Shown here in pieces: positions 18,419 through 29,962 of a stretch of DNA of 35,273 bases; position 1 is the first letter of the stretch; each line of letters starts with the position of its first letter. The stretch lies in the NCBI GenBank assembly GCA_903847405.1, contig CAINDP010000090.1:1-35273 (forward strand). The letters are read 5' to 3'. The DNA comes from an uncultured Myxococcales bacterium. GTDB taxonomy: Bacteria; Myxococcota_A; UBA9042; DTJE01. Made by a program: the position numbers and the translations under genes. The notes below the pieces were generated by a model that saw only the letters and a program-made list of their open reading frames with translations, made no database searches and had not been told where the DNA came from.

Positions 18419-19521
18419 CGGCCGCCGTCCGCAATCGCCGTGCCCTGCTGACCGGCGCCCAGACCGGGGGACACCTGTACCCCGCGGTGGCGCTGGGGCG
18501 GTGGCTGGCCGATCGCGGGATCGAGGTCGTTCTGGTGGCGTCGGGCGAGGCGGCCGAGGCCGACGTGCTGAAGGGCGTCCCGTTCCAGGTCGAGCGCCTG
18601 CGCGTCGGCAAGTTGAAGGGAATGGGCTGGCGGACGCGGGTCCAGGGCGCGGCGTCGCTTCCGATGGGACTGGTCCGGGCGACGGCGCTGGTCCGGCGTC
18701 TGGACCCGGGCGTGGTCGTCGGATTCGGCGGCTACACGACGGGGCCGGTGGTCCTGGCGGCGGCGTTGCTGGGCGTGCCCACGGCCATCTGCGAGGAGAA
18801 CTCGATCCCCGGCCTGACGAACCGCCTGCTGGCGGGGGTCGCGCGGCGGATCTTCGTGGCCTATGACCAGGCGGGGGCGATGCTTTCGTCCCGCAAGTCC
18901 CTGCTGACGGGCGTGCCGGTGCGGCCCGCGATCCTGGACGTGCCGGCCCGGACCTACGCGGGGCCCGGCCGGAAGATCCTGGTGTTCGGCGGATCCCAGG
19001 GGTCGCGATTCCTGAACCGCCGGGTGCCGGGCGTGCTGAAGCGCCTGGCCGCAGGCCTGGGCGGGATTTCGGTGCTGCACCAGGCGGGCCGCGGGAACGG
19101 CGACGAGGTCCGTGCGCTGTACGCCGACCTGGGCCTGGCGGCGGACGTCCGGGACTACGTGGACGACATGCCGGCGGCGTACGCGTGGGCGGACTTCGCG
19201 GTATCGCGATCGGGTGCGGGCACCGTGTCGGAAATGTCGGCCATCGGCCTGCCGGCGCTGTTCGTGCCGTTCGCCGCCGCGACCGACGACCACCAGGCCG
19301 CCAACGCCCGGCCCCTGGTGGCTGCGGGCGGGGCCTTGATGATTCGGGAAGAGGCCTTCGACGAGGTCGCCGTGGCCGGTGCGCTGATCGAAATCGTGGC
19401 CAGCCCCGATCGGCTGGCGGCAATGGCGATGGCCAGCCGGGGCCAGGGGCGCCGCGATGCGCTGGACGTTCTGGGGGCGGAAGTGGCCGTGATGCTGGGT
19501 GCAGGAGGGGGAAGCCGATGA
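18415..19521 (+). CDS. murG: UDP-N-acetylglucosamine--lipid I N-acetylglucosaminyltransferase MurG
   Basis: 368 residues, GT-B fold. The second half has the UDP-GlcNAc signature SRSGAGTVSEMSAIGLPALF and the DDHQAANA block. The first glycine-rich loop is AQTGGH (15-20), whereas most MurG have GGTGGH; the catalytic-site histidine H20 is kept. GFGGYTTGPVV and CEENSIPGLTNRLLA are also family blocks. It acts at the inner face of the membrane and makes lipid II. It overlaps ftsW and ftsQ by four bases each. murC and murB, which usually follow, are absent. Confidence 0.94.
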   Translation: MTAAVRNRRALLTGAQTGGHLYPAVALGRWLADRGIEVVLVASGEAAEADVLKGVPFQVERLRVGKLKGMGWRTRVQGAASLPMGLVRATALVRRLDPGVVVGFGGYTTGPVVLAAALLGVPTAICEENSIPGLTNRLLAGVARRIFVAYDQAGAMLSSRKSLLTGVPVRPAILDVPARTYAGPGRKILVFGGSQGSRFLNRRVPGVLKRLAAGLGGISVLHQAGRGNGDEVRALYADLGLAADVRDYVDDMPAAYAWADFAVSRSGAGTVSEMSAIGLPALFVPFAAATDDHQAANARPLVAAGGALMIREEAFDEVAVAGALIEIVASPDRLAAMAMASRGQGRRDALDVLGAEVAVMLGAGGGSR

Positions 19522-20390
19522 AACGATGGGGAGGCAACCGCAAGCGTACGACGGTCCGGCAGCGGTGGTCGTGTGCCTGCTCCACGACCCGTCGGAAGGC
19601 CTGCGCCGCCGCTGCGCCCGTGGCGTCCCTGCTGGCCGGTTTCGCGATGGTGGTGGGCGGCAACGGGACCTGGTCCACGGTGCGCGACAGTCCCCACTTC
19701 CGGCTGCAGCGCCTGGACGTCGTCGGCGCCGTGACGATGCCCGAGGACGAAATCCTGGCCTCCTGCGGGCTGGTTCGCGGCGGGACCCGCGTGCTGGGCC
19801 TCGACCCGTCCGACGTGGCGGCGACGTGCGAGGCGGATTCGCGGATCCGCTCGGCACGGGTCGAATCGTTCCTGCCCGACCGGGTCCGCGTGCAGATCGA
19901 AGAGCAGCGGCCCGTGCTGGCCGTCGCGACCGACCAGGGCGTGTGGCTGGTGAACGCGTTCGCCGAGGCCTATGCCCCCTGGGATCCCCTCGACGTCCGG
20001 GACCTTCCCCTGATGGTCGGCTCCTCGGAAACCGCCACGGCGGTCCAGCGGGAGCCCCTGCTGCGGGAAGCGGTCGCGCTGCTGCGGACGACGGGCCGGG
20101 ACGCGGGTCCCTGGGAAGGGCAGGGCCTGTTGATCGAGCACGACCCGACGCTGGGCTTCACGGTCGCCCCGGCGGCGCGCGGCATGTCGGCGCGGTTCGG
20201 CGTGGGCCCGTTCCCGGCCAAGATGAAGCGATTGAAGACGGCGCTGGAGGTCGTGAAGAAGCGGGGCCTTCCCGTGGCCGAAGCGTTCCTGGACGACGGG
20301 ATTCGGCCGGGCCGCGTGACGTTGCGGCTGGGCGGCTTCGGGCCGTTCGCCGACGCGGATCGCGGCGACCGGCTCGGGAGGGTGCCATGA
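19518..20390 (+). CDS. ftsQ: Cell division protein FtsQ/DivIB
   Basis: 290 residues from the ATG that overlaps the murG stop. A basic N-terminal cytoplasmic part (RKRTTVRQRW) is followed by one membrane helix (about 31-50). The POTRA domain begins at about 62 (FRLQRLDVVGAVTMPEDEIL) and leads to the FtsQ beta domain with RVESFLPDRVRVQIEE. FtsQ bridges FtsA/FtsZ and FtsL/FtsB in the divisome. The tail RGDRLGRVP overlaps the ftsA start. A cysteine-containing N-terminus (CACSTTRRKAC) is unusual. Confidence 0.9.
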   Translation: MKRWGGNRKRTTVRQRWSCACSTTRRKACAAAAPVASLLAGFAMVVGGNGTWSTVRDSPHFRLQRLDVVGAVTMPEDEILASCGLVRGGTRVLGLDPSDVAATCEADSRIRSARVESFLPDRVRVQIEEQRPVLAVATDQGVWLVNAFAEAYAPWDPLDVRDLPLMVGSSETATAVQREPLLREAVALLRTTGRDAGPWEGQGLLIEHDPTLGFTVAPAARGMSARFGVGPFPAKMKRLKTALEVVKKRGLPVAEAFLDDGIRPGRVTLRLGGFGPFADADRGDRLGRVP

Positions 20391-21619
20391 AGAACCGCAG
20401 CGAGATCGTCGCCGCCGTCGATTTCGGGACCACCAAGATTTCGGTCCTGGTGGCCCAGATCGACGACAACGGGCTGACGGTCCTGGGCGTCGGTACGGCC
20501 GAGTGCGAGGAGGGCCTGCGCAAGGGTATGGTCATCGCGATCGGCAAGGTCGTCGAGGCCATCCGGCAGGCGCGCCACGACGCCGAGCAGATGTCCGGCT
20601 GCATCGTGTCCGACGTGCTGGTGGGCGTGGGCGGGACCCACATCGTCGGCGTGAACAACCAGTCGATGGTGTCCCCGAAGGCGCGCGAAATCACGGAAAT
20701 GGACGTGACGCGGGTCCTGGACATGGCCAAGGCGCTGTCGATGCCGGTGGACCGCCAGGTCATCACGATGCTGCCCAAGCAGTACGCGGTGGACGAGCAC
20801 GACGGCATCAAGGATCCCGTGGGCATGGCCGGGGTGCGCCTGGACGCCGAAGTGCATCTGGTCACGGCCGCCCGCTCGGCCCTGGACAACCTGCGCCGCT
20901 GCTGCGAGCGGTCGGGCCTGCGCGTGGTGCAGTTCGTGGCGAACCCGGTGGCGTCGGCCCTGGCGGTCCTGGAAGACCACGAGCGCGAACTGGGCGTGGT
21001 GGTCCTGGACCTGGGCGGCGGGACCGGCGACCTGACGATCTGGCACGGCGGCCGCCTGGTCCACACCGGCGTCATCGGCGCCGGCGGCGAACTGATCACG
21101 CGGGACATCGCGACCGGCCTGCGCACGCCGATGTCGCGTGCCGAGGAGATGAAGGTCAAGCACGGTTGCGCGTGGGGCGAACTGGTCAACGCATCGGATC
21201 AGATCGAGGTGCCCGGCGTGGGCGGCCGCGAGGACAAGGCGCTGTCCCGTCGCGTCCTGACCGAAATCATCGAGCCGCGGGTGATCGAGATCTTCAGCAT
21301 GGTCAAGCGCGAGATCCAGAAGACGCAGTACGACGACAACCTGGCCGGCGGCCTGGTGCTGACGGGCGGGGCGTCCCAGATGCCCGGGATGGTGGAACTG
21401 GGCGACGAGATCCTGAACCTGCCGGTGCGCCTGGGGCAGCCCCGGGGGATCCAGGGGCTGAAAAGCATCCTGGAAAGCCCGGCGCTGGCGTCGGTGTACG
21501 GCCTGGCCGTGTTCGCGGCGCTGTCGTGGCGCGCGGACATGCCGAAGTCGATGCTGCCCGTGACGGACGTTCAGCCGTCGGTCGGGTGGCGGGGATTCCT
21601 GAAACGGATCGGATGGTGA
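20387..21619 (+). CDS. ftsA: Cell division protein FtsA
   Basis: 410 residues of the actin fold. The phosphate 1 motif is DFGTTKIS (from D12), phosphate 2 is LDLGGGTGDLT and the adenosine motif is LTGGASQMPG. The 1C domain lies between the first two. The C-terminal helix GWRGFLKRIGW is amphipathic and would anchor the protein to the membrane. FtsA tethers FtsZ polymers. It starts inside the ftsQ stop (ATGA) and ftsZ follows after 78 bases. Confidence 0.95.
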   Translation: MKNRSEIVAAVDFGTTKISVLVAQIDDNGLTVLGVGTAECEEGLRKGMVIAIGKVVEAIRQARHDAEQMSGCIVSDVLVGVGGTHIVGVNNQSMVSPKAREITEMDVTRVLDMAKALSMPVDRQVITMLPKQYAVDEHDGIKDPVGMAGVRLDAEVHLVTAARSALDNLRRCCERSGLRVVQFVANPVASALAVLEDHERELGVVVLDLGGGTGDLTIWHGGRLVHTGVIGAGGELITRDIATGLRTPMSRAEEMKVKHGCAWGELVNASDQIEVPGVGGREDKALSRRVLTEIIEPRVIEIFSMVKREIQKTQYDDNLAGGLVLTGGASQMPGMVELGDEILNLPVRLGQPRGIQGLKSILESPALASVYGLAVFAALSWRADMPKSMLPVTDVQPSVGWRGFLKRIGW

Positions 21620-21697
21620 TTCCGGGTCCGGCCGCGTGGTCCAAGGGGGGACGTCGCGGCAGGTCGCGGAGGACAGATATACCGGAGGGGGGACACG

Positions 21698-22981
21698 ATG
21701 GACCGACTGTTCGAAGTGGTCAATGAAGTGGACGAGCTGGCGGACTTCCAGGTGGACGAGGCGGTCATCAAGATCGTAGGCGTCGGATCCGGTGGCGGCA
21801 ATGCCGTCAACTCGATGATCGACCACAAGGTCGCCGGCGTTCAATATATCGCCGTGAACACGGATCTGCAGGCGCTGCGCCAGTCGCGCGCGGAACAGCG
21901 CATCCTGTTGAAGGGCCCGACGAAGGGCCGCGGCGCGGGCGGCGATCCGATCGTGGGCAAGGAGGCCGCCGTCGCCGACCGCCAGCGCATCGACGCGCTG
22001 CTGGAAGGCGCGGACATGGTCGTGCTGGCGACGGGCCTGGGCGGCGGCACCGGGACGGGCGCCTCGCCGGTCATCGCGGAAATCGCCCGCAGCAAGGGCA
22101 TCCTGACCATCGCCGTCGTGACGCTGCCCTTCGCGTGGGAAGGCCGCGCCAAGGGCCAGAAGGCGTGGGACGGCCTGGAAGGGCTGCGCAAGGTCGTGGA
22201 CGCCTACATCGTCATCCCGAACGACAAACTGTCGCGGGTGGCGCCGGAAAACCTGCCCACCGTGCAGGCGTTCCGCATGATCGACCAGGTCCTGTGCGAT
22301 TCGGTGACCGGCGTCGTGGACCTGATTTCCCGCCCGGGCTTCATCAACCGCGACTTCCGGGACGTCAAGGCGGTCCTGTCCGGCTGCGGCCAGTGCGTCA
22401 TGGGCACGGGCGTGTCGTCCGGCGAGGGGCGCGCGCTGTCGGCCCTGGAGCAGGCCATCAGCAACCCGCTGCTGGAGGACACCCCCATCGACGGCGCCCG
22501 GTCGATCCTGGTCAACGTGGTCCAGGGCCCCGACGGCACGAACGCGGAAAACGGCCTGATCGGCGAGCGCGTCAACGAACTGCTGGCGGCCGACGGCAAC
22601 CTGACGTTCGGGCTGGCCTTCGACGAGTCCCTGGGCGACCGGATCAAGGTCACGGTCATCGCGTCGGGCCTGGAGGACATCGAGGTCGTCCGGGCGGGCG
22701 TGGACCTGCAGGAGCAGTCCTCCGGGATCGTCCGGCAGGTATCGACCGTGTCGTCCAAGTTCGACCGCTACGGCGCGCGCCCCAGTCTGGCCGAAGCGGA
22801 GGAGCCTGTCGCACGGCCCTTTCGTGGGACTGCCGCCAATCCCTCGACGGTGAACGAGTCCGTGTTCGGGACCCCCGTGTTCAACCCCCTCGACGGTGAG
22901 AGCGAGCTGGAGCAGACCCCCGCCTACCGCCGCATCGCCCCCTGGTCCCGCGGCTTCACGGCCAAGGCCGAGCAGCCGTAG
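21698..22981 (+). CDS. ftsZ: Cell division protein FtsZ
   Basis: 427 residues of the tubulin fold. The nucleotide loop is [11 protein letters not shown] (28-38) and the GTPase motif [11 protein letters not shown] is at 113-123. The T7 loop reads NRDFRDV, keeping both aspartates of the usual NxDFADV. The segment [12 protein letters not shown] departs from the common LTRGLGAGGNP. A linker of about 60 residues leads to the conserved tail TPAYRR, which binds FtsA and other partners, followed by IAPWSRG. GGAGGGGGG lies just upstream of the ATG. It assembles the Z ring at midcell. Confidence 0.97.
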
Positions 22982-24021: not shown

Positions 24022-24852
24022 ATGCTCGACGCCGGGGAACGAAAGCGGCTGAAGGACAAGGCCCGCGAACTGCGTGAAAAGATCATCGAGGTGGCCTTCA
24101 CCTGCGGTGGTGCGCACGTGGGGGGGGCGTTCAGCCAGCACGAGATTCTGGTCGCGCTGTACTACAAGGCGATGAAGATCGATCCGAAGCGCCCGACGTG
24201 GGAGGACCGCGACCGGTTCATCCTGTCCAAGGGCCACGGGGGCGTCGGCCACGCCGTGATCCTGGGCGACCTGGGGTTCTACGACCCGGCGCTGTTGAAG
24301 GACTTCAACAAGACCGGGTCGCCTTTCGGGATGCACCTGGACCGCCTGAAGGTTCCGGGCGTGGACTTTTCCACCGGTTCCCTGGGCCACGGCCTGGCCC
24401 TGGGCCTGGGCGCGGCGATGGGCGCCCGGCAGACCGGCCAGTCCTGGCGCACCTTCGTGGTGATGTCGGACGGCGAGTGCGCGGAAGGCTCCGTCTGGGA
24501 AGCCTGCATGGCGGCCGCCAACTTCAAGGCGTCGAACCTGACGGCCTTCGTGGACCGCAACCGGCTGTCGCTGGACGGCCCGACCGAATCGCTGATGAAA
24601 CTGGATCCGCTGGACAAGAAGTTCGAGGCCTTCGGCTGGCGCACGCTGGTCATCGACGGGCACGACTTCGACGCGATCCTGGACGCGATCGAAATCGCCC
24701 GGGCGGAAAAGGACCGGCCGGTGATGATCGTGGCCAATACGATCAAGGGCAAGGGCGTCGATTTCATGGAAGAAAAGACCGCCTGGCACTACGGCGGACT
24801 GGACGAAGCCACCCGCGACGCGGCGCTGGCCAGCATCCGGAAGTCGAAGTAG
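24022..24852 (+). CDS. Transketolase, N-terminal (pyrophosphate-binding) subunit
   Basis: 276 residues, the usual length of a split N-subunit. The ThDP diphosphate motif runs from SDGE (149-152) to the asparagine of DRN (178-180). H72 (SKGHGG) and SLGHGLALGLG (120-130) match the transketolase core. Together with the C-subunit it would make one ThDP enzyme that moves two-carbon ketol units between sugar phosphates, or an unusual relative. Archaea and some biosynthetic clusters use such split enzymes. GAGGAG (24008-24013) precedes the ATG. The C-subunit gene follows after 15 bases. Confidence 0.93.
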   Translation: MLDAGERKRLKDKARELREKIIEVAFTCGGAHVGGAFSQHEILVALYYKAMKIDPKRPTWEDRDRFILSKGHGGVGHAVILGDLGFYDPALLKDFNKTGSPFGMHLDRLKVPGVDFSTGSLGHGLALGLGAAMGARQTGQSWRTFVVMSDGECAEGSVWEACMAAANFKASNLTAFVDRNRLSLDGPTESLMKLDPLDKKFEAFGWRTLVIDGHDFDAILDAIEIARAEKDRPVMIVANTIKGKGVDFMEEKTAWHYGGLDEATRDAALASIRKSK

Positions 24853-24867
24853 CGCGAGGAGGCGGAC

Positions 24868-25880
24868 ATGGCAAAGGCGCAGGGACTCACCTGGACCATC
24901 GATGACGCGGATCACATGACCCAGGCCGAAATCTACGGGGAAACGCTGACCCAGATCGGGCTGAAGGACAAGCGCGTCGTGGCGCTGACGGCCGACCTGG
25001 CGCGGTCCACCAAGATCGGCAAGTTCGAGGAAAAATCCCCGACCGCTTCTACAACGTCGGCATCGCGGAAGCGAACATGATCGCCATCGCGGCGGGCATG
25101 ACGGAAGCCGGGCTGATCCCGGTCGTGTCGACCTTCGCGGCCTTCGCGTCCATGCGGGCGGCGGAATTCGTCCGGACGGACCTGTGCTACCAGAAGCGCA
25201 ACGTGAAGATCATCGCGACGCACTCGGGGACGTCGTTCGGGCAGGCGGGCACCACGCACCACTGCACGGAAGACATCGCCATCATGCGGTCCTTCGCGGG
25301 CATGACGGTCATCGCGCCGGCGGACGCCTACGAAACGGCCCGCGCGGTGGCGGCGGCCATCGACCATCCGGGCCCCGTGTACATCCGCATCGGCCGCGGC
25401 TTCGAGCCGCCGATGCACAAGTCCATGGATTTCGACTTCGAGATCGGCAAGGCCATCAAGCTGCGGGACGGCCGCGACCTGACGATCATCGCGACCGGCG
25501 TCACGGTCCTGCACGCCATGGAAGCCGCCGAGCGGGCGTCCCAGAACGGCGTGTCGGTGCGCGTGCTGGACATGCACACCATCAAGCCCCTGGACGAGGA
25601 AGCCGTCCGCGAGGCGCTGCTGGACACGCGGCGCATCATCACGGTCGAAGACCACACGGTCATCGGCGGCCTGGGCGACGCGGTGGCGGACGTCATCGCC
25701 CGTTCGGGCAAGGGATGCGCCTTCAAGAAGCTGGGCTACCAGGACACCTTCGCGATGGTGGGCTACTACGAGGACCTCCTGCACCACTACGGGATCGACG
25801 CGGACGGCATCCTCGACGCCATCGGCGTGGTCCTGAAGGCCGAGTTCGAGCAGGACGAGGACTGGGAGGACGAAATCTGA
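24868..25880 (+). CDS. Transketolase, C-terminal subunit, broken by a one-base frameshift
   Basis: The first 56 codons (24868-25035) read MAKAQGLTWT to GKFEEK. That frame then runs out of homology and stops at 25080. The rest of the subunit continues in the -1 frame from 25035 to 25880 (KIPDRFYNVGIAEANM and onward), so one base is missing near the run AAAAAT at 25031-25036. The joined protein would be about 337 residues. It has the conserved GIAE glutamate, the pyrimidine-binding region, THSGTSFGQAG and the C-terminal domain with IITVEDHTVIGGLGDAV. A lost A or T in a homopolymer (sequencing error), a real mutation or translational slippage are all possible. The next gene overlaps its TGA by one base. 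Confidence 0.88.
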
Positions 25881-26650
25881 TGGCAGATGCACGGGAGGAA
25901 CTGAAGGCGCGAGTCTTCCTGCGTTCCGCTCTGCCACTGGTGAAGGTGGTGCTGGCGGAACGTCCGCAGTACCGGCACCTGCTGCATCGCGCCAACGGCG
26001 TCCTGCAGTTCGCCGCGCGCGACAGCGAGCAGGGCGCCTGGGTCGGCATGACGGAGGAGGGGATCGAGGTCAAGCCCGGGATGCATCCCGAGCCGTCGAT
26101 CACCCTGACCTTCAAGACGCTGAAGGATCTGAACACGTTCTTTGCCGGGGGCATGGCGCTGCCGGGGGTCCACGGCCTGCGGGGCCTGCCCACGCTGGTG
26201 CGCTTCCTGCCGTTCATGCTGAAGCTGAAGATCCTGATGCCGACGGCGATGCCGGAAGACCTGGACGGCAAGGCGCTGAAGGTCCGCATGCTGATGCAGA
26301 TGATCGCGTCGGGCCTGTCGCAACTGGTCAAGGGCGGCGACGAGGTCCTGGGCGGCTATGCGAAGAAGAGTCCCGACCGCGTGTTCCAGTTCACGGTCCG
26401 GGGCGGGCCCGCGTGCTACCTGCGCGTCAAGGCGGGGAAGTCCAAGGCCGGCCTGGGGACCTACGCGCGGCGGCGGCCCTACGTCCACATGATCTTCAAG
26501 GACATTCCGGCCGCGTTCGAGGTGTTGACGCAGCGCGTCGGCACCGTGGAAGCGGTCAAGAACGGGTACCTCACGGTCGAAGGCGCGATGGAAGGCAGCA
26601 AGGATGTCGGGCTGTTCATGCAGCACCTCGATTCCTTGACCATGGGCTAG
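25880..26650 (+). CDS. Protein with two SCP2-like (sterol carrier) halves
   Basis: 256 residues, no signal peptide or membrane helix. Two similar halves are apparent. The first, about 28-110 (FAARDSEQGAWVGMTEEGIEVKPG, then SITLTFKTLKDLNTFFAGGMALPGV), and the second, about 165-250 (VFQFTVRGGPACYLRVKAGKSKAGLG, then VHMIFKDIPAAFEVLTQRVGTVEAV), both follow the SCP2 order of strands and the dl..l..G turn. SCP2 folds bind lipids or other hydrophobic ligands. The start shares an A with the transketolase stop. The next gene encodes a similar protein. The assignment is by pattern, not by search. Confidence 0.72.
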   Translation: MADAREELKARVFLRSALPLVKVVLAERPQYRHLLHRANGVLQFAARDSEQGAWVGMTEEGIEVKPGMHPEPSITLTFKTLKDLNTFFAGGMALPGVHGLRGLPTLVRFLPFMLKLKILMPTAMPEDLDGKALKVRMLMQMIASGLSQLVKGGDEVLGGYAKKSPDRVFQFTVRGGPACYLRVKAGKSKAGLGTYARRRPYVHMIFKDIPAAFEVLTQRVGTVEAVKNGYLTVEGAMEGSKDVGLFMQHLDSLTMG

Positions 26651-26663
26651 GCAGGAGGGAGTC

Positions 26664-27467
26664 ATGTTCACGCCGATGCTGACCCGGTTGGGGCTGTATA
26701 CCCCGCCCTCGGTGCGGGATCGCGTCCGCGCCGGGATGCACCTGCACGCGGTGCTCGGGGCCATTCCGCACCTGGTGCGGCTGGACGAGGAGGCCGCCGC
26801 CACCGCCCGCCAGATGGGCAAGGTGGCCCTGGAGTTCCGCGTCTTCGACGGCCCGCGGTCGGTCCTGGCCTTCGACGGCGGGAAGGCCACGCTGTCCCGC
26901 GAGGGTCACGGGAACGTGGGCCTGTTCTTCCCGTCCTGCGACGCGCTGAACCGCATGTTCGACGGGGAAAAGGTCACGCCGATCCCGTTCCGGGCCTTCC
27001 CGCTGCACCTGAAGGCCCTGCAGTTGCTGCCGAAATTGACCGACCGGCTGACGACGTTCCTGAAGCCGCCTGCCGGCATGCTGGACGACCGGGACTTCCT
27101 GGCCAAGCACGTGGAACTGTCGCTGCTGGTGGGCATGATGGCCACGCGCGACCTGGTGGACTACGACCCGAAGGTCGTGCGGATCGCCCACGACCTGCCC
27201 AGCGGCACCGTGGTCTTCGAGGTCGTCGGCGGGCCCCAGGCGCACGTCAAGATCGACCATGGCGTCATCGAGGCGGGGGCCGGGGCGCTGCCCGACCCGT
27301 CGACGACGGTCACGATCAAGACCCTGGACCTGGCCCTGGGCCTGATCCAGGGCACCGTGGACACGTTCGCCGCGAACGGCAGCGGCGATATCCGGGCGTC
27401 GGGTTCCCTGGCGCTGGTGGACGAGTACTTCAACCTGTTCGATCGCGTGGGCCTTTACCTGAAGTAA
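26664..27467 (+). CDS. Second SCP2-like double-domain protein, paralogue of its neighbour
   Basis: 267 residues from an ATG with AGGAGGGAG upstream. It repeats the neighbour's plan. A first half (about 50-105, VALEFRVFDGPRSVLAFDGGKATL, then VGLFFPSCDALNRMFDGEKVTPI) is followed by a second (about 170-260, HDLPSGTVVFEVVGGPQAHVKI, then TTVTIKTLDLALGLIQGTVDTFA). No signal peptide is seen. It lies 13 bases after its paralogue and 16 before the aminotransferase. The pair may form a heterodimer or bind different ligands; that is inference. Confidence 0.72.
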   Translation: MFTPMLTRLGLYTPPSVRDRVRAGMHLHAVLGAIPHLVRLDEEAAATARQMGKVALEFRVFDGPRSVLAFDGGKATLSREGHGNVGLFFPSCDALNRMFDGEKVTPIPFRAFPLHLKALQLLPKLTDRLTTFLKPPAGMLDDRDFLAKHVELSLLVGMMATRDLVDYDPKVVRIAHDLPSGTVVFEVVGGPQAHVKIDHGVIEAGAGALPDPSTTVTIKTLDLALGLIQGTVDTFAANGSGDIRASGSLALVDEYFNLFDRVGLYLK

Positions 27468-27483
27468 CCCATCGGAGGCGGAC

Positions 27484-28722
27484 ATGGCTCTCTACAAGTT
27501 CGACAAGTCCAACGAGCTGTTCCAGCGTGCGACCGCGGTGATCCCCTCGGGGATTTCCGGCAACAAGAACCCGGCCTTCGCGGTGCCCGGGTCCTTCCCC
27601 TACTACGCCGTCAGGGGCGAGGGGTGCCGGTACTGGGACCCGGACGGCAACGAGTACATCGACTACCTGGCCGGGTACGGGCCGATCGTGCTGGGCTACA
27701 ACGACCCGGTCGTCGACGCGGCGGCCGACGTCCAGCGCAAGCTGGGCACGGCGTTCAACCACCCGACCCCCCGGGCGGTGGAACTGGCCGAAAAACTGGT
27801 CGGCATGATCCCGCTGATCGACTGGTGCGCGTTCGGCAAGAACGGGACGGACGTCACCGCCTACGCGGTCCAGACGGCGCGGGAGCACACCCAGCGCCGC
27901 AAGATCCTGAAGGCCCACGGCGCCTACCACGGCAGCCAGTCCTGGTGCCGCCACGGCCTGGGCGGCATCATCGACACCGACTTCGAGCACGTCCACGACT
28001 TCATCTGGAACGACGCGACCAGCGTGGAGGACTACTTCAAGAAGTACCCGGGCGACGTGGCGGGCGTCATCATCACGCCGTACCACCACCCCGCCTTCGC
28101 CAACCAGGTCATGCCCAAGCCGGGATTCCTGCAGGACCTGCGGCGCATCTGCGACAAGTACGAAGCCGCGCTGATCCTGGACGACGTGCGGGCGGGCTTC
28201 CGCCTGGACATCAAGGGATCCCACGAGTACTTCGACTTCAAGCCCGACATGACCTGCTACTGCAAGGCCATGGCGAACGGCTACGCGATTTCGGCGGCCT
28301 GCGGCACCAACAAGTACAAGCCTGCCGCATCGAAGGTGTTCTTCACGGGCACGTACTACACGTCCGCGGTCGAGCAGGCCGCGTCGCTGGCGTGCCTGGA
28401 CGAACTGCAGAAGCCGGAAACGCTGACCCACATGATGGCGATGGGTACCATGCTGCAGACGGGCCTGAAGAAGGCGGCCGAGGACCGGGGCCTGCAGGTC
28501 ACCATCAGCGGCCCGCCGACGCTGCCCTTCATGACCTTCACCAACGAAACGAACTTCCGCCGCAGCCAGTTGTTCGGCGGCGAGGCGGCCAAGCGTGGCG
28601 TTCTGCTGCACCCGCACCACAACTGGTTCATCATGCGGTCGCACACCCCGGCGGACATCCAGAAGACGCTGGACGTCGCGGACGACTGCTTCAAGCTGGT
28701 CAAGAAGGAGTTCGGGGGCTAG
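27484..28722 (+). CDS. Class III PLP aminotransferase, glutamate-1-semialdehyde aminomutase-like
   Basis: 412 residues of fold type I. K261 (YCKAMANGY) is the expected Schiff-base lysine. LDDVRAGFR (232-240) holds the aspartate that binds the pyridine nitrogen, and NGTDVTAYAV (120-129) is the phosphate-binding region, where GSA aminomutases usually have NSGTEA. The family moves amino groups on semialdehydes or omega-amino acids. hemL in the strict sense is doubtful, because NSGTEA is replaced and the operon has no haem genes. GGAGGCGG precedes the ATG. A role downstream of a transketolase product is possible but not shown. Confidence 0.87.
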   Translation: MALYKFDKSNELFQRATAVIPSGISGNKNPAFAVPGSFPYYAVRGEGCRYWDPDGNEYIDYLAGYGPIVLGYNDPVVDAAADVQRKLGTAFNHPTPRAVELAEKLVGMIPLIDWCAFGKNGTDVTAYAVQTAREHTQRRKILKAHGAYHGSQSWCRHGLGGIIDTDFEHVHDFIWNDATSVEDYFKKYPGDVAGVIITPYHHPAFANQVMPKPGFLQDLRRICDKYEAALILDDVRAGFRLDIKGSHEYFDFKPDMTCYCKAMANGYAISAACGTNKYKPAASKVFFTGTYYTSAVEQAASLACLDELQKPETLTHMMAMGTMLQTGLKKAAEDRGLQVTISGPPTLPFMTFTNETNFRRSQLFGGEAAKRGVLLHPHHNWFIMRSHTPADIQKTLDVADDCFKLVKKEFGG

Positions 28723-28744
28723 CCCCTGACCCAGGGGTAGAACC

Positions 28745-29962
28745 ATGGACCGCCTCTTCGATCTGCACGCCCATCCCAGCCTGAAGATGTACTACCTGCC
28801 GTACCTGACGCGGACCTTCCACGCCGCGCTGGCGCAGGAGCGCTTCTGGAACCCCCTGAACTTCCAGACGCAATACGGGAACCTGAAGGGCAGCCCGGTG
28901 CGCGCCATCTGCTGCGCCCACTACGTGATCGAGTCGAAGTTCCTGGCCAGCGGCATCAAGCAACTGGGGCGCACGCTGGCCTGGGCCCTGGCTCCGGCGC
29001 ACTACAGCCGCATGCGCAAGGCGGACCCGTGGGTCACCTTGCAGGGCATGATGGAAACCCTCGAGGACGCGATCGCCAACACGAACCGCCGGGTCAAGGC
29101 CGGGGAAAAGCGCCTGCGCCTGGCCACGCGGTTCGCGGACCTCCAGGGGCTGACCGGGGACGAAATCGCGGTGATGCACGCCATCGAGGGCGCCCACGCG
29201 CTGGGGGACCGGGCGCCGGGCGTGTCCAGGGAGGCGTTCTGGGAGCAGACGAAACTGCGGCTGGCGGAACTGAAGCAGCGCGGAGTCTGCATGATCGGGC
29301 TGTCGCACTTCTTCGACAACGAGTTCGCGCCGCAGATCGACAGCACGGAAATCATCCCGAAGGTGAAGGACGGCCACGTCGTCGCGGTGCGGGACGACCA
29401 GTTTTTCGAAATGAAGCGCGCCACGTGGACCTGGGGGGATCCGGAGCACCTCAGCGAGGAGTTCGCCCGGGAGTGCCTGCGCCTGGGGATCGTGCTGGAC
29501 CTGGTGCACGTCCAGGAGCACGCCCGCTGGAAGGTCTACGAGTTGTGCGCCCAGGCCGGGAGGCCCGTCGTCCTGTCTCACAACGGCCTGCAGCACTTCT
29601 TCAACCACGAGTACAACCTGTCCGACGCCGAGGTGCTGCGGATCCGCGAACTGGGGGGCGTGATCGGGCTGATCCTGTGCAAGCGGTGGCTGCTGTCGCC
29701 CGAGGAGTGCCACAACAGCGGCGCCGACGGCCTCCACGACCTGATCGAGGTGATGCGGTACGTGCGGGACCTGACGGGCGACGTATCGGTGATCGGGATC
29801 GGGACGGACTTCGACGGCCTGACGCATCCCTTCACGGACTGCTGCAAGCCCGACGAACTGGGCCGGCTGGCGTACCACATGCGCAAGCACTTCACGCCGC
29901 GGGAAATCGACGACATCCTGTGGGGCAACAGCCTGCGGGTGTTCGAGCGGGGCTGGGTGTAG
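28745..29962 (+). CDS. Membrane dipeptidase-like metallohydrolase (M19 family)
   Basis: 405 residues, TIM-barrel amidohydrolase fold. Likely metal ligands are H8 and H10 (FDLHAHP), E148 (HAIEGAHALGD), H255 (DLVHV) and H279 (VLSHNG), with D355 in GTDFDG near the end. M19 usually opens with HND, so HAH marks a variant branch. There is no signal peptide, so the enzyme is probably cytoplasmic. M19 enzymes hydrolyse dipeptides, often with a D-residue or dehydro residue at the C-terminal side. It is the last gene of the six-gene run and converges on rubrerythrin with 21 bases between stops. Confidence 0.85.
   Translation: MDRLFDLHAHPSLKMYYLPYLTRTFHAALAQERFWNPLNFQTQYGNLKGSPVRAICCAHYVIESKFLASGIKQLGRTLAWALAPAHYSRMRKADPWVTLQGMMETLEDAIANTNRRVKAGEKRLRLATRFADLQGLTGDEIAVMHAIEGAHALGDRAPGVSREAFWEQTKLRLAELKQRGVCMIGLSHFFDNEFAPQIDSTEIIPKVKDGHVVAVRDDQFFEMKRATWTWGDPEHLSEEFARECLRLGIVLDLVHVQEHARWKVYELCAQAGRPVVLSHNGLQHFFNHEYNLSDAEVLRIRELGGVIGLILCKRWLLSPEECHNSGADGLHDLIEVMRYVRDLTGDVSVIGIGTDFDGLTHPFTDCCKPDELGRLAYHMRKHFTPREIDDILWGNSLRVFERGWV

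What the first reader, a model, noticed from the sequence alone, without database searches (positions are those of the whole stretch)
24022..29962. Six-gene cassette of split transketolase, paired SCP2-like proteins, aminotransferase and dipeptidase
Six plus-strand genes lie head to tail with gaps of 13 to 22 bases or a one-base overlap, behind one promoter-like site. The parts are a ThDP two-carbon transfer enzyme, two lipid-type ligand binders, a PLP aminotransferase with a changed phosphate loop and an M19-type hydrolase with HAH instead of HND. I know of no described pathway with this set. A sensible reading is a route that builds an amino-carbon skeleton on a carried hydrophobic ligand and releases it from a dipeptide, but this is inference from gene content only.
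Basis: partly seen in the sequence, partly recalled or inferred. Interest (0 to 1): 0.72.

Follow-up and report, generated by a model that had tools for sequence, protein, structure and literature searches.

The report
Lipid-carrying transketolase–aminotransferase gene module
The six genes are real, and five of them form a gene set kept together in at least five bacterial phyla that probably joins or splits a two-carbon unit and an amino group on a greasy molecule, perhaps a way to make or break sphingolipid-type backbones without the usual first enzyme.

Summary
The cassette is real. Five of its genes (split transketolase tktN/tktC, two tandem SCP2-fold proteins, a class-III aminotransferase) form a conserved module. 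All five sit together in 30 of 80 related loci from Myxococcota, Desulfobacterota, Spirochaetota, Clostridia and Hydrogenedentota. The sixth gene (M19) belongs only to this Myxococcota family.

The window's tktC lacks one base that relatives have, so it is frameshifted. No promoter-like site was found.

The aminotransferase is closest to FumI (39% identity), which deaminates hydrolysed fumonisin, a sphingoid-base analogue. The transketolase keeps its ThDP and ketol-binding residues, but the acceptor-side Asp (E. coli D469) is Ala or Gly in all 30 module copies checked. Other transketolases read in the same genomes keep Asp, and D469 changes let E. coli transketolase accept aliphatic aldehydes. 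Both SCP2-like proteins model confidently as lipid-binding folds.

Best reading: hydrophobic aldehyde + C2 unit ↔ 1,3-dihydroxy-2-ketone ↔ 2-amino-1,3-diol, a sphingoid-type head group, without serine palmitoyltransferase (SPT). None of 28 module-bearing genomes in two phyla had an SPT-like enzyme, against 104 of 553 without the module (uncorrected for phylogeny). Substrate and direction are inferred.

The parts
24022..24852 (+). tktN: N-terminal (ThDP/pyrophosphate-binding) subunit of a split transketolase, 276 aa
   Evidence: Pfam Transketolase_N 2e-41; best solved relative is the Carboxydothermus split transketolase N chain 6yak, 4e-70; H26/H66/H100/D155/N185 of E. coli TktA conserved
24868..25880 (+). 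tktC: C-terminal (Pyr + C domain) subunit of a split transketolase, interrupted in this assembly by a one-base deletion near 25036
   Evidence: Transket_pyr 3e-32 and Transketolase_C 1e-31; relatives have one continuous frame of about 337 aa; one base missing in the window; D469-equivalent is Ala
25880..26650 (+). scpA: tandem SCP2-fold lipid-binding-type protein, 256 aa, partner of the transketolase
   Evidence: Pfam SCP2 4e-6; AF2 pLDDT 94, Foldseek hits to SCP2 proteins and the SCP2-like domain of SdsA1 alkylsulfatase; travels with tktNC when the module is split (L033)
26664..27467 (+). scpB: second tandem SCP2-fold protein, 267 aa, partner of the aminotransferase
   Evidence: No Pfam hit; AF2 pLDDT 95.7, Foldseek hits to SCP2 (including a C16 fatty-acid-bound SCP2) and UbiJ; lies directly 5' of the aminotransferase in 64 of 80 loci
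27484..28722 (+). AT: class-III PLP aminotransferase, FumI-like, 412 aa
   Evidence: Aminotran_3 1e-43; best solved relative is aminopentol aminotransferase FumI 6hbs, 8e-97 over the full length, 39% identity, against 6e-56 for the best GSA aminomutase
28745..29962 (+). M19-type metal-dependent amide hydrolase, 405 aa, accessory and confined to this family
   Evidence: Peptidase_M19 1e-37; Glu, His, His, Asp ligand positions kept, first motif HAH; homologues at 47-72% in 9 of 12 module-bearing genomes of the family, absent from two related genomes without the module

Best explanation
The five-gene core is a lipid-handling transketolase-transaminase module. scpA presents a hydrophobic (probably long-chain) aldehyde to TktNC, which adds a ketol C2 unit from a sugar phosphate or hydroxypyruvate to give R-CH(OH)-CO-CH2OH. 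scpB hands this dihydroxyketone to the FumI-like aminotransferase, which aminates C2 to R-CH(OH)-CH(NH2)-CH2OH, a sphingoid-type 2-amino-1,3-diol. The chemistry is reversible. I slightly favour synthesis (SPT-independent sphingoid-base formation) over breakdown. In this Myxococcota family an M19-type amidase acts on an amide of the same amine. Shown: gene content, conservation, pairing, family relationships, residue pattern and SCP2 folds. Inferred: the substrate, the order of steps, the direction and the role of M19.
For: (1) The aminotransferase is far closer to FumI than to GSA aminomutase. FumI moves the C2 amino group of hydrolysed fumonisin B1, a 2-amino-3-hydroxy long-chain base, to pyruvate. 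(2) TktNC keeps H26, H66, H100, S385, E411, H461, H473 and R520, so ketol chemistry is plausible. The D469 position is Ala in 29 of 30 and Gly in 1 of 30 module copies, but Asp in E. coli TktA, human and Carboxydothermus enzymes and in the six other transketolases of module-bearing genomes where the motif was read. D469T is described as a propanal-accepting mutation that gives a hydrophobic surface (PMC10787763). (3) Both SCP2-like proteins are confident SCP2-type folds. (4) All five genes occur together in 30 of 80 loci from at least five phyla. In one genome the module is split into scpB-AT and tktNC-scpA, which pairs each carrier with one enzyme. (5) In L048, L052 and L060 the aminotransferase is followed instead by an acetolactate-synthase-type ThDP carboligase, a second ThDP partner. 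(6) SPT-like enzymes are absent from all 28 module-bearing genomes of two phyla against 104 of 553 others (pooled Fisher p = 0.005). (7) The genome has a separate transketolase with the normal GEDG motif, so this one is not the housekeeping enzyme.
Against: No substrate evidence exists. FumI's known physiological direction is deamination. TetR regulators, an OYE-type reductase and a VOC protein beside the module in other phyla, and an amide hydrolase here, fit breakdown as well or better. No aldehyde-forming enzyme or N-acyltransferase lies in the operon, and the acyltransferase linked to SPT in related genomes is missing from nearly all module-bearing family members. The SPT exclusivity is not corrected for phylogeny and is not significant in either phylum alone (p = 0.14, 0.08). 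Module-bearing genomes also lack the other alpha-oxoamine synthases, so lineage effects are possible.
Confidence: 0.38

Rival explanations
1. Same chemistry in reverse: an anaerobic sphingoid-base (or similar amino-diol) degradation module. An amidase frees the amine, the aminotransferase deaminates it with pyruvate, and TktNC splits the dihydroxyketone into a fatty aldehyde and a C2 unit that enters the pentose phosphate pool.
For: FumI runs as a catabolic deaminase with pyruvate. DesAB of Clostridium scindens is a split transketolase-like pair proposed to cleave the cortisol dihydroxyketone side chain and feed the C2 unit to pentose phosphates (PMC3735941). TetR, OYE and VOC neighbours occur in other phyla and M19 here. 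The distribution is patchy, 13 of 297 Desulfobacterota.
Against: Kept in 12 of 13 sampled genomes of the window's family. No fatty-aldehyde dehydrogenase or sphingolipid hydrolase was seen to recur in the operon. Mutual exclusion with SPT is not predicted by catabolism.
Confidence: 0.3
2. Same enzyme logic on a different hydrophobic substrate: a steroid-like or polyketide-like ketone, an isoprenoid, or another amino-ketol natural product.
For: SCP2 folds bind many lipids. DesAB is a split transketolase acting on a steroid. The family includes scpB-aminotransferase pairs without transketolase in Verrucomicrobia and Actinobacteria, so the aminotransferase has several contexts. FumI's substrate is itself a polyketide.
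Against: No steroid, polyketide or tailoring genes recur beside the module among the neighbours examined. One conserved gene set over five phyla suggests a common metabolite.
Confidence: 0.25
3. Ordinary pentose phosphate transketolase with unrelated neighbours; the cassette is a chance grouping.
For: Split transketolases occur in ordinary sugar metabolism (PMC7661550).
Against: Conserved five-gene linkage in 30 of 80 loci and at least five phyla; a separate standard transketolase in the same genome and a module-specific residue change.
Confidence: 0.02

Closest known systems
FumI aminopentol (hydrolysed fumonisin B1) aminotransferase, Sphingopyxis sp. MTA144 (PDB 6hbs)
   Same: Class-III aminotransferase family, 39% identity over the full length, same N-G-[ST]-D-x-T loop
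   Different: FumI belongs to a fumonisin catabolic cluster; its gene context was not compared here. Substrate of the window enzyme unknown.
Carboxydothermus hydrogenoformans split transketolase (6yaj/6yak)
   Same: Two-gene split transketolase, closest solved relative; takes bulky aldehydes such as phenylacetaldehyde (PMC7661550)
   Different: Keeps the GEDG motif (Asp at the E. coli D469 position), which is GxAG or GxGG in the module
DesAB steroid-17,20-desmolase of Clostridium scindens
   Same: Split transketolase-like pair proposed to cleave an alpha,alpha'-dihydroxyketone side chain from a hydrophobic molecule (PMC3735941)
   Different: No aminotransferase or SCP2 genes in desABCD; sequence relationship to the module not tested
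SPT / bCerS / CerR bacterial ceramide pathway
   Same: Would end at the same head group if the sphingoid reading is right
   Different: Uses serine (or alanine) + acyl thioester with an alpha-oxoamine synthase; the module has none of these enzymes and does not co-occur with SPT-like genes in the samples
Engineered transketolase D469 variants and transketolase-transaminase synthesis
   Same: D469 substitution opens transketolase to non-hydroxylated aldehydes; PMC10787763 mentions spisulosine, a sphingoid-type base, among the target compounds
   Different: Man-made enzymes, no SCP2 carriers; here the substitution is natural

Membership tests
Transketolase (ThDP ketol transferase) | Transketolase N, Pyr and C domains on one or two chains | tested here: met
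   Pfam; split into two genes; frameshift in the window copy only
Transketolase (ThDP ketol transferase) | ThDP activation Glu and ketol-binding His set (E. coli E411, H26, H66, H100, H473) | tested here: met
Transketolase (ThDP ketol transferase) | Polar acceptor-side Asp (E. coli D469) | tested here: not met
   Ala in 29/30, Gly in 1/30 module copies; Asp in the paralogues read. It belongs to the transketolase superfamily but with an altered acceptor site, so it is not claimed to be a sugar-phosphate transketolase
FumI-type aminotransferase | Full-length similarity above all other solved class-III aminotransferases | tested here: met
   328 bits FumI against 193 bits best GSA aminomutase
FumI-type aminotransferase | Activity on a 2-amino-3-hydroxy long-chain base | not testable with these tools
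   needs enzyme assay
SCP2 lipid-binding fold | SCP2 alpha/beta fold | tested here: met
   AF2 pLDDT 94-96, Foldseek hits to SCP2 structures, two fold repeats per chain
SCP2 lipid-binding fold | Binding of a lipid ligand | not testable with these tools
   needs binding assay
Peptidase M19 (membrane dipeptidase) | Domain match and metal-ligand motifs | tested here: inconclusive
   Pfam 1e-37; later ligand positions kept, first motif HxH instead of HxD
Peptidase M19 (membrane dipeptidase) | Dipeptidase activity | not testable with these tools
   needs enzyme assay
SPT-dependent sphingolipid pathway | SPT-like alpha-oxoamine synthase in the genome | tested here: inconclusive
   G000 has one alpha-oxoamine synthase at a contig edge, 318 bits against a cut-off of 500; 0 of 28 module-bearing genomes reach the SPT-like range used here, best E <= 1e-110
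DesAB steroid desmolase | Sequence clade of DesA/DesB and desCD neighbours | not tested
   DesAB sequences were not fetched and the module loci were not searched for desC or desD

The most novel reading that the evidence does not exclude
A serine-palmitoyltransferase-independent biosynthesis of sphingoid-type long-chain bases in bacteria: fatty aldehyde + sugar-derived C2 unit by a split transketolase, then transamination, with each step served by its own SCP2-type carrier.
Probability: 0.22. Interest if true: 0.92.

Novelty: new variant of a known kind. Interest (0 to 1): 0.64.

Why it matters
SPT is treated as the gateway to sphingolipids; for example, a Black Sea study counts sphingolipid producers only by Spt-like genes (PMC11334938), and one full module copy here (L036, isolate name BS150m) appears to come from a Black Sea genome. 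A second, unrelated route to the same head group, or an anaerobic way to dismantle it, would change how producers and consumers are recognised in sediments and guts. It would also be a natural counterpart of the engineered transketolase–transaminase route. Cultured carriers (Desulfosarcina widdelii, Lutispora saccharofermentans, Oceanirhabdus seepicola) make it testable now.

Tried and rejected
Dipeptide-release role for M19: rejected as part of the core. Chance grouping: rejected. Housekeeping transketolase: rejected. Pyrimidine genes next to scpB-AT in several Oscillospiraceae (dihydroorotase-like, DHO dehydrogenase, OMP decarboxylase): seen in a handful of related loci, treated as neighbours rather than partners. 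Codon bias as a measure of expression: tktC and AT exceed all 154 background genes, but ribosomal genes average the same as background in this genome, so the test does not discriminate (the ftsA value in that call was read out of frame and is void). Alpha-oxoamine synthase loci checked by neighbours are biotin type (G031) or threonine-degradation type (G284, G291), so they do not speak for SPT. Paper searches for a described SCP2/transketolase/aminotransferase cluster or a transketolase route to sphingoid bases found none; subscription papers are mostly not held.

Full report
Observation. Two corrections matter. The tktC gene is frameshifted in this assembly: relatives, including a same-genus genome about 96% identical over this protein, have one more base at the site, and the frame after it is well kept, so the break is recent or an assembly error. 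The consensus scan found no promoter-like site.

Anatomy. Pfam and solved-structure searches give a split transketolase closest to the Carboxydothermus split enzyme, a class-III aminotransferase closest to FumI, and a distant M19 hydrolase. The 'changed phosphate loop' of the aminotransferase (NGTDVT) is shared with FumI (NGSDAT). The third protein has a weak SCP2 hit; the fourth has no family hit. AlphaFold models from alignments of 30 and 32 sequences are confident (pLDDT 94-96), show two SCP2-like repeats per chain, and Foldseek matches SCP2 proteins, UbiJ and the SCP2-like domain of long-chain alkylsulfatases.

Conservation. In the phylum sample, the fourth protein occurs in 15 of 284 genomes, including 12 of 13 sampled members of the window's family. 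In the retrieved loci of that family the five core genes keep the window order apart from contig ends. A scan of 84,980 species genomes with the aminotransferase profile gave 80 loci. In 64 an scpB-like gene lies directly 5' of the aminotransferase (median gap 35 bases between matches), and in 30 all five genes are together, 29 of them in the permuted order scpB-AT-tktN-tktC-scpA. Record titles place these in Myxococcota, Desulfobacterota, Spirochaetota, Clostridia and Hydrogenedentota. The 80 are the best matches of 584, chosen by the aminotransferase, so the fractions are not prevalences. In genome G009 tktN-tktC-scpA and scpB-AT sit at different places, which assigns one carrier to each enzyme.

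M19. The window's M19 type is adjacent to the aminotransferase in G000, G011, G036 and G040. In G176 a contig break falls inside the aminotransferase, and M19 follows the rest of that gene on the other contig. It is elsewhere in the genome in four more family members and missing from three; two related genomes without the module lack it. It is a family-level accessory. Two relatives have an M28 peptidase behind the aminotransferase instead.

Transketolase site. Aligned to E. coli TktA, catalytic and ketol-binding residues are kept, but D469 is Ala. This holds in 29 of 30 module copies, with Gly in the last. Human and Carboxydothermus enzymes keep Asp. In the same genomes, the two other split and four full-length transketolases in which the motif could be read also keep GEDG. 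D469T in E. coli transketolase is reported as the propanal-accepting mutation giving a hydrophobic surface for nonpolar acceptors (PMC10787763). The natural change to Ala therefore points to an acceptor without the usual hydroxyl. That is an inference from engineering data.

Chemistry. A C2 ketol unit added to R-CHO gives R-CH(OH)-CO-CH2OH, and transamination gives R-CH(OH)-CH(NH2)-CH2OH, the sphingoid head group. FumI removes such a C2 amino group from a long-chain 2-amino-3-hydroxy compound with pyruvate (PMC2933618). In three other loci the aminotransferase is followed by an acetolactate-synthase-type ThDP carboligase, so two unrelated ThDP ligases partner this aminotransferase family; with pyruvate the second would give the 1-deoxy version. 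DesAB is a precedent for a split transketolase acting on a hydrophobic dihydroxyketone (PMC3735941).

Direction. For synthesis: none of 28 module-bearing genomes has an SPT-like enzyme (best E <= 1e-110), against 54 of 269 Myxococcota and 50 of 284 Desulfobacterota without the module (pooled Fisher p = 0.005; each phylum alone p = 0.08 and 0.14). Most module-bearing genomes lack any alpha-oxoamine synthase (9/15 against 24/269; 12/13 against 70/284) (module presence was scored by scpB in Myxococcota and scpA in Desulfobacterota, and the counts were taken by hand from the tables). The one sampled family member without the module (G065) and the order-level relative G106 both carry an SPT-like gene beside an acyltransferase-like gene. 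None of this is corrected for phylogeny. For breakdown: FumI's role, the TetR, VOC and OYE neighbours in other phyla, the amide hydrolase here, and the patchy distribution. I give synthesis a slight edge and mark it as open.

Novelty. No paper describing this gene set was found in the held library. The enzymes are known kinds; the conserved combination with paired SCP2 carriers appears undescribed. If the sphingoid reading is right it would be a new route; I rate that at about one in five for synthesis.

Noticed in passing
window 25030-25041: One base is missing in tktC compared with relatives, breaking the frame in this assembly only.
   Followed up: partly
L048:1572-3266, L052:2013-3707, L060:11299-12699: An acetolactate-synthase-type ThDP enzyme lies directly 3' of the FumI-like aminotransferase where the transketolase is absent.
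   Followed up: partly
L077, L106, L090, L074 (3' of scpA) and other module loci: Recurrent VOC/glyoxalase-like protein, OYE-type oxidoreductase and TetR regulator beside the module in Clostridia, Spirochaetota and Desulfobacterota.
   Followed up: partly
G065:C257 (L130), G106:C76 (L131): Relatives without the module carry an SPT-like gene followed by an acyltransferase-like gene (a bCerS candidate from memory), which nearly all module-bearing family members lack.
   Followed up: partly
Myxococcota and Desulfobacterota samples: Module-bearing genomes often lack the whole alpha-oxoamine synthase family, not only SPT.
   Followed up: partly
L073, L075, L082, L083, L107: Gammaproteobacterial FumI-like aminotransferases sit behind a POT-family (peptide-type) transporter, with no SCP2 gene.
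   Followed up: no
window 19499-22981: By reading only: an FtsA-like and an FtsZ-like gene lie just upstream of the cassette, followed by a YjbQ-like gene; a rubrerythrin-like gene is downstream on the minus strand.
   Followed up: no
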